35,561 nt of DNA, taken from positions 1 through 35,561 of the forward strand of contig JAJZZE010000054.1 in assembly GCA_021797735.1 (NCBI GenBank), read 5' to 3'. This DNA comes from Thermoplasmata archaeon. GTDB taxonomy: Archaea; Thermoplasmatota; Thermoplasmata; Thermoplasmatales; Thermoplasmataceae. Each line of letters opens with the position of its first letter. Position 1 is the stretch's first letter. Shown here in pieces: positions 11,358 to 17,912 of the stretch. The translations under genes and the position numbers were made by a program. A model generated the notes under the pieces. That model was not told the DNA's origin and made no database searches. It saw only the letters and a program-made list of their open reading frames with translations.

Positions 11358-11962
11358 TTCATGAACCTTTTTATTTCCTCCACGGTTGGAGGGTTAAAGC
11401 AGTTTCTGCACCTTGGCTCATAGCTTTCCTTACCGCCTATTTTTATGGCCTCACCAAATGTTTCTTTTCCATTTAAAATCCGCTGTGTAAATGTTGCGTC
11501 TTCACCACATTTTGCACAGACTGCGGTTAATGAATATACCTGATCTGCCCTTGATAGTACTTCCATTGAAGTTTTAAATGGTAGCCCAAGATTATTTTTG
11601 TTCAATGCAGCAACATATACGATTTTATTTTCCCTTGCCATTTTATCAGCAATTTCCGGCAATATTGAATTGTGGTTCCAGAACTGTGCCTCATCTATTC
11701 CAATAACATCAACATTTTTTGATAACCTGTAAATCTTATCTATACCACTGTTATCGGTGCTAACAACAATTGCAGGTAATTTTATTCCCTTATGTGTTGT
11801 AACGGAATTATTATCATATCTGGTATCAATTTCGGGCTTGAATAGCAGTGTGTTTCTACCCGCCAGATTTTCACGTTCAAGCAATTCTATTAACCTTGAT
11901 GTTTTACCTGAAAACATCGGCCCGGTTATTACTATTAATTTGCCTATAATTATATTCTTCAT
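11351..11962 (-). CDS. tdk: Thymidine kinase
   Basis: Phosphorylates thymidine with ATP in pyrimidine salvage, type II (TK1-like) zinc enzyme. The P-loop GPMFSGKT is at residues 14-21, DEAQ at 90-93 (E91 the likely catalytic base), and a zinc site with C149-x-x-C152 and C185-x-x-C188. The lasso substrate loop with YEPRCRNC at the C-terminus is complete. The 203-residue length is normal. It is the only gene on the minus strand between arcC and the TnpB relic, so probably has its own promoter in the AT-rich DNA above 11962. Confidence 0.94.
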   Translation of the reverse strand: MKNIIIGKLIVITGPMFSGKTSRLIELLERENLAGRNTLLFKPEIDTRYDNNSVTTHKGIKLPAIVVSTDNSGIDKIYRLSKNVDVIGIDEAQFWNHNSILPEIADKMARENKIVYVAALNKNNLGLPFKTSMEVLSRADQVYSLTAVCAKCGEDATFTQRILNGKETFGEAIKIGGKESYEPRCRNCFNPPTVEEIKRFMNQ

Positions 11963-12002
11963 TTATTTCGTATTATTAACATGTATAATATTTTAACACC
12001 CG

Positions 12003-12242
12003 GGGCTTTGGGACATAATTATTTTATCCTTATTTTTAATTACGGTATGCGGGTCATAGACCCAAGCAGTACCGGGACGCTTAGTCTACTGTAATTCCTG
12101 TGATTCCATATCCGACAGGGATGTTACTGCCTATATTAATATTGCATTACGGGGTCGGATAAGGCTAAAACGATCCCAGCTATAGCTAAAAGGCGAGCCA
12201 GGTGAAGCAATGGTACTGGAATGTTCTGCCCCAGGCGGGTGA
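12003..12242 (+). pseudogene. tnpB: TnpB (IS200/IS605-type) C-terminal relic
   Basis: One reading frame, ending at TGA 12240-12242, spells the C-terminal zinc ribbon of an IS605-family TnpB: PGRLVYCNSCDSISDRDVTA, then YINIALRGRIRLKRSQL, then LKGEPGEAMV. The CxxC pair, the DRD motif with the catalytic Asp, and the K-G-x-P-x-E-A-M end are recognisable. The frame is broken by TAG at 12057-12059 and at 12183-12185, and the first zinc Cys pair has lost one Cys (VCGS). Everything upstream (the RuvC core) is gone. TnpB is the RNA-guided nuclease of IS605; this copy cannot be active. Flanking palindromes remain downstream. Confidence 0.75.
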
Positions 12243-12300
12243 ACTAATCCAGAGGGTCAATGGATATAAGGGGCTTTGTATCCCACAGCCAACACATGAA
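12243..12300. mobile_element. Probable right end of the TnpB relic (hairpin DNA, possible omega-RNA remnant)
   Basis: Just after the TnpB stop, GGATA (12262-12266) pairs with TATCC (12279-12283), and GGCT (12272-12275) can pair with AGCC (12287-12290). In IS605 elements the omega-RNA spans the tnpB 3' end and the right-end structure. So this stretch together with the preceding pseudogene may be the leftover of that RNA locus. Whether it is still transcribed cannot be seen. Confidence 0.4.
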
Positions 12301-12392
12301 GAATATGTGCTTACCATCTTTTATATTGCTTAAAGTTATATTAGAAAATATTATGTGTTTTGATAATATTATGTATCAATCCGGGTGAATTA

Positions 12393-12692
12393 ATGGAAGC
12401 TGAGATAACAAATTTCAAGGAATATTATGATAATAGGATAGTTACAGCGCTAATAGGTCTTGAAGTCGACATAAATAAGGTTGAAATAATAGGAAAAGCA
12501 ATAGCTGAAAACAAAAATGTTGAGGAGACTTTTATTGTAACCGGTGAATATGACATAATAATAAAGGTTAGATTCCCGGATTATATTTCCCTCGAAAAAT
12601 TCATAGTTAACAACCTGAATTCCATAGAAGGAATGAAAAAATCCAAAACAATGATGGTTTTATCCATCTTGAAGGATATTTATATGAGGTGA
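12393..12692 (+). CDS. Stand-alone Lrp/AsnC ligand-binding (RAM) domain protein
   Basis: The protein of about 99 residues is a single RAM domain, the amino-acid-binding C-terminal half of Lrp/AsnC regulators, with no DNA-binding domain. The fold pattern is visible: TALIGLEVDINKVEIIGKAI, the ETFIVTGEYDIIIKVRF strand pair with Gly and Asp, then SLEKFIVNNLNSIEGMKKS. Such small proteins form dimers or larger assemblies and may modulate full-length Lrp proteins. The ATG at 12393 is preceded by GGTGA at a correct spacing; the upstream in-frame TTG at 12360 is therefore unlikely. It lies 4 bases before UPF0147, likely co-transcribed. Confidence 0.85.
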   Translation: MEAEITNFKEYYDNRIVTALIGLEVDINKVEIIGKAIAENKNVEETFIVTGEYDIIIKVRFPDYISLEKFIVNNLNSIEGMKKSKTMMVLSILKDIYMR

Positions 12693-17279: not shown

Positions 17280-17912
17280 ATCTCTAAAATGTGCATGGAA
17301 TAATTAATATTTTCTATACATCTTTTCATAAAAATATATAGAGAATAACTCATGAACATTCATGAAGCATCTGTAACTGACCATACAAATCGTTGAAAGG
17401 CATCTTCGGGGAAACATATAATAAATGTTGAATATAGTTAACGCAGAATTTCAGTAATTTTACCCATAGTAGTCATAATAGAGACAATTTAACAATAACC
17501 ATTAAATTCTAAATGATTTAACGGTTTTCCAGAAATAAATTCAATAGAATCCGGGTGTGAACTATATCACAAAAACCCTGACACTTTGTGACCAATTTTA
17601 ATGGGTACTTTCCATTACTTTTTTATTTTTTTATACCTTCTATGCTTTCTTTCAATTTTTTTAAATATAACCTGTATTCTTCCATGAAACATACAAACCA
17701 GACCCGAACGAAGATTATAGTGAGATGCCGGCGAAATAATATTACCTAAAACCCTTATAATCAATATTATTAAAATTGATATTTAACAGAGAACTAAATA
17801 TAAAAAGCATAATTTAGACATTATATCAGTTATAGGACTCCAATCCTGCTTAATGGCATCAGGGACAGGTTTTTATAAAAACTCTTCAATATTAGCGTTT
17901 TAATTTTAAAAT
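17280..17912. other. Gene-poor stretch with a possible transposase C-terminal remnant
   Basis: No convincing gene is seen in this 630-base gap. On the minus strand, roughly 17625-17760, a frame reads HYNLRSGLVCMFHGRIQ followed by VIFKKIERKHRRYKKIKK and a stop. The dense basic tail resembles the C-terminus of some archaeal transposases, but no catalytic residues remain, so this is a weak call. The rest is AT-rich and without clear repeats. The other frame at 17162-17359 on the minus strand overlaps the AhpD gene and looks like a shadow. Confidence 0.3.

What the first reader, a model, noticed from the sequence alone, without database searches (positions are those of the whole stretch)
12003..12300. 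Dead TnpB with preserved zinc ribbon, DRD motif and right-end hairpins
A single frame preserves the TnpB C-terminal zinc ribbon and ends in the typical K-G-x-P-x-E-A-M block, but has two internal TAG stops and no RuvC core. The sequence after the stop still holds hairpins. Because the omega-RNA of IS605 elements is transcribed from this part, a guide-RNA remnant could outlive the protein and be used by other TnpB copies.
Basis: partly seen in the sequence, partly recalled or inferred. Interest (0 to 1): 0.55.

Follow-up and report, generated by a model that had tools for sequence, protein, structure and literature searches.

The report
TnpB fossil in IS5-type transposon
The stretch is the shrunken remains of a jumping gene that carried an RNA-guided DNA cutter (TnpB) between the ends of an ordinary DNA transposon, and the places where such copies sit look as if the cutter helped decide which of them survived.

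Summary
The TnpB remnant is real: the window frame matches a profile of intact relatives at 48.6 bits, against 2.1 bits for the best of 1000 shuffles. It is not an IS605 remnant. It is a 287-bp, internally deleted copy (12004-12290) of a transposon with inverted-repeat ends and 9-bp target duplications; a sister species holds the empty site. The same ends bound an IS5-family insertion sequence, complete in the sister species. Relatives in other Thermoplasmatota carry an intact TnpB as the only gene between comparable ends. A second, distant TnpB clade does so too. In four intact genes the last 36 codons are nearly frozen at synonymous sites, which fits an omega-RNA. TTTY lies directly 5' of the target copy in 36 of 37 anchored TnpB-derived copies, against 4 of 14 left ends of IS copies with the same terminal repeat. 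In the empty allele that is a TAM followed by the predicted target. I infer that TnpB favoured copies next to its TAM. The second clade lacks the signature (0 of 18), so a transposase preference is not excluded. The window copy itself is dead.

The parts
11991..11994 (+). TTTT directly 5' of the target duplication (candidate TAM)
   Evidence: TTTY 36/37 anchored clade-1 copies, 4/14 IS left ends; present in the empty allele of the sister species
11995..12003 (+). 5' copy of the 9-bp target duplication (AACACCCGG, 6/9 to the 3' copy)
12004..12029 (+). Left end (GGCTTTGGGACATAATTATTTTATCC); first 12 bases shared with an IS5-type IS of the genus
12043..12049 (+). Deletion junction at the short direct repeat CGGTATG; most of tnpB is missing here
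   Evidence: read against the longer copy on contig C49
12042..12212 (+). TnpB C-terminal remnant: part of the zinc ribbon, DRD motif, KGxPxEAM block; TAG at 12057-12059 and 12183-12185
12150..12290 (+). Omega-RNA-like 3' part (aligned to the constrained 3' end of intact relatives)
   Evidence: no sign of upkeep in this family's short copies
12270..12290 (+). Right end (reverse complement GGCTGTGGGATACAAAGCCCC)
12291..12299 (+). 3' copy of the target duplication (AACACATGA, identical to the empty site)
12291..12310 (+). Predicted guide if the RNA were made (target copy plus flank); in the empty allele it lies directly 3' of TTTT
   Evidence: inference from anatomy
17685..17743 (-). Remnant of an end of the IS5-type partner element

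Best explanation
This is a non-autonomous, internally deleted copy of a TIR transposon whose ancestor carried a tnpB gene. SHOWN: inverted repeats matching an IS5-family IS, a 9-bp target duplication, an insertion absent from the sister species, TnpB-only relatives with comparable anatomy. INFERRED: an IS5-type transposase moves the TnpB elements in trans. TnpB makes an omega-RNA from the 3' end of its own mRNA, and the guide begins right after the right end, so it reads target copy plus flank. In the empty allele this target lies directly 3' of TTTY, which acts as the TAM. In the filled allele the 5' copy has the TAM but only 9 matching bases, and the 3' copy has the match but no TAM. So TnpB cuts empty alleles only, and repair from a filled copy keeps or spreads the element. 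Only insertions next to TTTY gain from this, hence the signature. The window copy has lost the protein and is now a fossil. Confidence is about 0.92 for the anatomy and about 0.6 for TnpB causing the TTTY signature.
For: Own-genome copies share both ends around differing TnpB pieces. Empty sites in the sister species with 95-99% identical flanks for four insertions. IS5-type partner of 1492-1494 bp, TIR 18-19 of 20; perfect 9-bp duplications in 2 of the 5 copies for which both ends were found (9 loci examined). TnpB-only elements with 8-11 matching target bases in several copies, not in all, e.g. not in L096 and L099. TnpB identity: NCBIfam guided_TnpB E 3e-25, 89 bits under a cut-off of 100; Pfam Cas12f1-like_TNB 62 bits over its cut-off; PDB profile hits to Cas12f and TnpB; model residues 2-157 align to Cas12f at Z 14.7 and to ISDra2 TnpB at Z 12.3; D/E/D and four Cys invariant in 7 of 7. 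Codon identity at same-residue codons 0.97 and 0.94 in the last 36 codons against 0.43-0.79 elsewhere; 8 of 28 predicted pairs with two-sided changes. TTTY: 36/37 against 4/14 IS left ends (p 8e-7) and 1/13 IS right ends. The mirror motif after the 3' copy: 2 of 22.
Against: The distant clade with the same anatomy has TTTY in 0 of 18. IS left ends show it in 4 of 14, while TTTT alone has a local background of 2.1%, so the transposase itself seems to like T-rich sites. A copy of about 50 bp without any RNA part (C22c) also has TTTT. Counting as failures the three clade-1 copies whose left end could not be anchored gives 36/40. No transposase was matched to the ACATTGTCAA/TTGACAAAGTC-type ends of the intact clade-1 elements. 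Left-end anchors in other genomes were set by eye. No RNA or nuclease data exist.
Confidence: 0.68

Rival explanations
1. TnpB is a passive passenger. The transposase that moves these elements (perhaps a relative of the IS5-type one found here) itself prefers TTTY next to the cut, and TnpB plays no part in where copies lie.
For: IS left ends show TTTY in 4 of 14 and a promoter-like TA step at -19 in 8 of 14; C22c, without the RNA part, also has TTTT; the distant TnpB clade lacks TTTY.
Against: The IS with the same terminal repeat shows it far less often (36/37 against 4/14). The motif is one-sided (mirror 2 of 22), while a transposase dimer usually gives two-sided preferences (established knowledge).
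Confidence: 0.27
2. It is a decayed IS200/IS605 element whose hairpin right end and RNA belonged to a Y1 TnpA system.
For: The genome does hold one IS200/IS605-type element with TnpA and TnpB.
Against: Inverted repeats and 9-bp target duplications; no DNA similarity of the window element to the three loci with longer TnpB frames (no match in L048-L050 at E 1e-3); the same ends bound a DDE-type IS.
Confidence: 0.02
3. The RNA part is kept as a working guide RNA used today by another TnpB.
For: The 3' part is present in 10 own-genome copies, the window copy included; several sit next to TTTT.
Against: Only remnants of this TnpB clade in the assembly. No extra conservation of the RNA part in copies with one shared deletion. 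Window copy z -0.56.
Confidence: 0.03

Closest known systems
Fanzor in TIR/TSD DNA transposons of eukaryotes and their viruses, including IS4-type elements (PMC3627910, PMC10711439; passages seen)
   Same: A TnpB-type RNA-guided nuclease gene as the only or an extra gene between TIRs of a DNA transposon, flanked by short target duplications.
   Different: Eukaryotic; here the nuclease is a TnpB in archaea and the ends are IS5-type with 9-bp duplications. [quoted passage not shown]
IS200/IS605 and IS607 elements with TnpB; TnpB-only IS1341-type elements
   Same: TnpB with RuvC and zinc ribbon, omega-RNA at the 3' end, TAM next to the left end (general knowledge).
   Different: Those lack TIRs and target duplications (PMC3627910 passage). 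In IS605 the TAM coincides with the TnpA target (recalled); here transposase target and TAM would be separate things.
IS5 family, IS903-like group
   Same: DDE transposase (NCBIfam IS5_2 E 2e-13), ends GGCTTTG.., 9-bp duplications (the likeness to IS903 is recalled).
   Different: The IS itself carries no tnpB; the TnpB elements carry no transposase.
MITEs
   Same: Short, internally deleted, multi-copy, ends shared with an IS present in the genome.
   Different: Derived from a TnpB-bearing element, not from the IS by simple deletion.

Membership tests
TnpB (Cas12-like RNA-guided nuclease), relatives | RuvC D..E..D triad and C4 zinc ribbon | tested here: met
   D168, E252, D339/D341 region and four Cys invariant in 7 of 7 (motif names recalled)
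TnpB (Cas12-like RNA-guided nuclease), relatives | WED/REC N-terminal fold | tested here: met
   model residues 1-160 to Cas12f and TnpB chains, Z 11.9-14.7; the rest of the model is too poor
TnpB, window copy | Complete open frame with RuvC core | tested here: not met
   C-terminal piece only, two TAG stops
Omega-RNA | Structured RNA over the 3' end of tnpB ending at the right end | tested here: inconclusive
   searches support it in relatives; no RNA data; window copy z -0.56; no Rfam match in the window at gathering score
IS200/IS605 | No TIRs, no target duplication, subterminal hairpins, Y1 TnpA | tested here: not met
   the one Y1 gene found in the genome lies in another element
IS5 family (partner IS) | DDE transposase of the IS5 group | tested here: met
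   NF033579 E 2.1e-13 (50 bits, cut-off 140); no Pfam match; structure model unusable. Family-level assignment only
IS5-type TIR element (window TnpB family) | Inverted terminal repeats matching a transposase-bearing IS, 9-bp duplications | tested here: met
   not shown for the other clade-1 genomes, whose partner IS was not found
IS5-type TIR element (window TnpB family) | Moved by that transposase | not testable with these tools
   needs a transposition assay

The most novel reading that the evidence does not exclude
Prokaryotic TnpB has been taken up by IS5-type DDE transposons, in two distant TnpB clades of Thermoplasmatota. In one clade RNA-guided cutting of empty sites has filtered insertions so that survivors sit exactly 3' of the TAM. 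That would be the prokaryotic counterpart of Fanzor in eukaryotic transposons, and a natural record of RNA-guided retention in which transposase target and TAM can be told apart.
Probability: 0.58. Interest if true: 0.82.

Novelty: new variant of a known kind. Interest (0 to 1): 0.66.

Why it matters
[quoted passage not shown] These elements suggest TnpB is not so confined. In IS605 elements the TnpA target and the TnpB TAM coincide (recalled), so insertion preference and nuclease-driven retention cannot be separated. Here they can: the same kind of ends occur with and without tnpB. The RNA-guided retention model becomes testable from insertion sites.

Tried and rejected
IS605 origin: rejected on inverted repeats, target duplications and empty site.

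Chance frame: rejected.

T-run as plain AT-richness: TTTT background 14 of 660 positions at -80..-20 of the own-genome copies; of the 25 TTTY in other genomes 13 are TTTC.

T-run as a two-sided transposase preference: mirror motif 2 of 22.

TATA-box-like targeting as the full cause: a TA step at -19 is seen in 15/18 distant-clade copies, 8/14 IS left ends, 8/13 IS right ends, 11/26 clade-1 copies of other genomes and 1/11 own-genome copies (7/11 at -18). Promoter-like targeting may be real, but it does not predict TTTY at -13..-10, which the distant clade lacks.

Upkeep of the RNA in the short copies: not seen. Special folding of the window 3' part: not seen.

AlphaFold models: TnpB mean pLDDT 55.7, only about residues 1-150 usable; transposase 45.4, not used. 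Rfam: no match in the window at gathering scores. One search found no ORFs because of my search pattern; redone.

In the phylum search only 4 of 14 candidates of the own genome were scored, so the absence of an intact clade-1 copy rests (N-terminal query, 13 of 13 scored). Repeats break this assembly, so a hidden copy is possible. The partner IS is likewise seen in the own genome only as ends and fragments.

Literature: searches listed no title or abstract that I recognised as a prokaryotic TnpB in a DDE TIR element; I looked at passages of three papers only. The large 2023 TnpB/Cas12 survey (PNAS) is not held, and many subscription papers are missing.

Rows dropped before the TTTY count: C14 (left end eroded; a failure), L102 and L227 (left end not found), the G025 orthologues of C9 (TTTT) and C48 (TTTG at the exact offset) as the same insertion events. 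Copies without a left end (C42, three of G025) and a short left-end-like fragment in G021 were not counted. L214 is counted as a failure. G061 copies b and d share their first target bases and may not be independent. One search counts 28 IS ends (5 TTTY), one search counts 27 (one remnant left out).

Full report
1. The observation. The frame from 12003 does hold a TnpB C-terminus. Against a profile of seven relatives it scores 48.6 bits, E 3e-17; the best of 1000 shuffles of the same residues scores 2.1 bits. Two TAG stops and the lack of a RuvC core are as described. The hairpins are drawable but not remarkable (z -0.56).

2. What the unit is. Searching the own genome with window 11960-12400 gave strong matches to the 3' part (window about 12119-12291; 10 copies with the window's own) and separate short matches to the first 45-50 bases, with varying middles between them. 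Laid side by side, copies share a left end GGCTTTGGGACATAATTATT and a right end ..CTATTGTCCCACAGCC, which are inverted repeats. Many have a 9-bp direct repeat outside. Read by eye for the 11 own-genome copies with a clear left end: 9/9 in four (C49, C26, C22c, C48), 8/9 in three (C22a, C22b, and C9 if its left end starts one base earlier), 6/9 in the window copy, none in C10 and C15 (whose flanks look exchanged between them), and no right end seen in the 700 nt read for C49x. Inside are pieces of TnpB: an N-terminal piece in several, a C-terminal piece in others, with different deletions. C10, C26, C22a and C22b share one junction. The window copy is joined at CGGTATG, which occurs on both sides of the deletion in the longer C49 copy.

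3. Empty sites. I searched seven insertion sites in the genus relatives and aligned six. In the sister species G025 four are empty, with 95-99% identical flanks: C49, C22a, C22b and the window site. The window site there reads ..AATATTTT AACACATGA AGAATATGTGC.. once; the window carries AACACCCGG before and AACACATGA after the element. C9 is filled in G025 (same site, a different internal deletion) and lacks the element in G023, where the target bases do not align cleanly. For C26 only the left flank aligned. So the window insertion is absent from the sister species and target copies are 9 bp.

4. The partner. A pattern search for the end found further sites, several at contig ends. These are the two ends of an IS. 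A complete copy lies in G025 (L160: 510-2001, 1492 bp, TIR 19 of 20) and others in G029 of another genus (1493-1494 bp, TIR 18 of 20); in the own genome only ends and fragments are assembled. Of nine loci examined both ends were found in five; two of these have perfect 9-bp duplications, TAAGATGCC and GTAGCAATA. Its 368-aa protein matches NCBIfam IS5_2 at E 2e-13, below the curated cut-off, and no Pfam family. At E 1e-10 relatives, many remote, occur in 39 of 117 genomes of the order. The IS and the TnpB elements share about the first 12 bases, with scattered identity beyond.

5. Relatives with intact TnpB. Open frames of about 370-460 codons without stops were found by the N-terminus in other genomes of the order (9 of 117 genomes have a match, remnants included) and by the whole protein in 12 of 389 genomes of the phylum, distant relatives included. 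The five named loci are from Thermoplasmatales, Thermoplasmata or Candidatus Thermoplasmatota assemblies. In G061 the element is about 1.25 kb and tnpB fills most of it; two further copies are shortened. Ends differ (left ACATTTG.. or ACATTGTCAA.., right ..TTGACAAAGTC/GCC), but the anatomy is comparable: inverted repeats, target duplications of about 9 bp in several copies (not in L096 or L099, for example), stop codon inside or next to the right end. One relative with a broken frame, L229, has ends GGCTTTGAGACAAAATTATT like the window family.

6. A second clade. TnpBs at 26-29% identity in another family of the class also lie between GGCTTTGGGATT-type repeats with 9-bp duplications (22 of 103 genomes of that family have members). 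Of 30 loci, 17 had both ends. Of these 17, 10 score 18 or more of 21 for repeat plus duplication, against 5 of 272 non-cognate pairings; 6 of 17 score above 18, against 0 of 272. The other 7 give no such support.

7. RNA. Across four intact genes, codons for the same residue are identical at 0.43-0.79 in 25-codon windows, but at 0.97 and 0.94 in the last 36 codons. That is what an overlapping RNA would give. Nine 3' ends give a consensus fold of 28 pairs, 8 with changes on both sides; nine sequences are few, and no separate covariation test was run. In the short own-genome copies the RNA part shows no such upkeep: in 5 of 6 pairs of copies sharing one deletion it is less identical than the dead coding part.

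8. The TTTY signature. Counted at the four bases directly 5' of the 9-bp target copy: own-genome TnpB-derived copies 11 of 11 (all TTTT), other genomes 25 of 26 (12 TTTT, 13 TTTC); IS left ends 4 of 14, IS right ends 1 of 13, distant TnpB clade 0 of 18. Fisher 36/37 against 4/14 gives p 8e-7; own-genome 11/11 against the same control gives p 5e-4. An earlier count with one eroded copy gave 11/12 against 5 of 28 IS ends, p 2e-5, and against 3 of 18 IS ends of G000 and G025 alone, p 9e-5. Copies are related, anchors in other genomes were set by eye and many controls are single ends at contig breaks, so these p-values are rough. In the four clean empty alleles the T-run is present without the element. 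The mirror motif beyond the 3' copy is nearly absent (2 of 22).

9. Mechanism. Because a TnpB guide is the sequence just 3' of the right end (established for IS605), here it would be target copy plus flank. Its match in the empty allele begins directly after TTTY. This fits the rule that the TAM is directly 5' of the target, and it spares both junctions of the filled allele. The rival is a transposase preference. The IS control argues against it; the second clade, which lacks TTTY, and the RNA-less copy C22c, which has it, argue for caution. A promoter-like TA step at -19, strongest in the GC-rich second clade (15 of 18; AT 0.80 at -22..-16 against 0.34 further out), suggests that the transposase itself picks promoter-like sites.

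10. Known or new. Bao and Jurka (PMC3627910, passages) describe Fanzor in TIR transposons and say TnpB-only prokaryotic elements lack TIRs and target duplications. Yoon et al. [quoted passage not shown] Two passages of PMC9956272 on TnpB elements of six bacteria mention only IS605 and IS607. My searches of the held library showed no counter-example (listings), but the main TnpB survey could not be read. I file it as a new variant of a known kind.

11. Verdict on the given finding. The window feature is a fossil. Its value is as the entry to the family: TnpB in IS5-type elements, with a signature that could tell RNA-guided retention from insertion preference.

Noticed in passing
L294-L323 (second TnpB clade), -22..-16 from the left end: A TTTAA/TATA-like box lies at a fixed distance (TA step at -19 in 15 of 18) upstream of the left end, in the orientation of tnpB, in otherwise GC-rich sequence: possibly promoter-directed insertion.
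   Followed up: partly
L038 (G000 C15) and L039 (G000 C10): Two short copies appear to have exchanged flanks (target copies GTTTTTGTT and ATATAATA swapped), as if recombination between them rearranged the chromosome, or the assembly joined them wrongly.
   Followed up: no
L040 and L079: The same insertion (C9 site) in two sister species has lost different internal parts, so internal deletion happened in place and independently.
   Followed up: partly
L046 about 1018-1068 (G000 C22): A mini-element of about 50 bp, little more than the two ends, with a perfect 9-bp duplication TAATCATAT and TTTT before it.
   Followed up: partly
L048, L049: An IS200/IS605-type element with Y1 TnpA and a 433-aa TnpB on contig C15, and a near-identical TnpB split into two frames on C1.
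   Followed up: no
window 17685-17743 (-): Decayed end of the IS5-type partner element; a matching remnant occurs in G025 (L223).
   Followed up: no
L160 528-851 (-): The partner IS holds a second, divergently oriented ORF of about 100 aa with no Pfam or NCBIfam match.
   Followed up: partly
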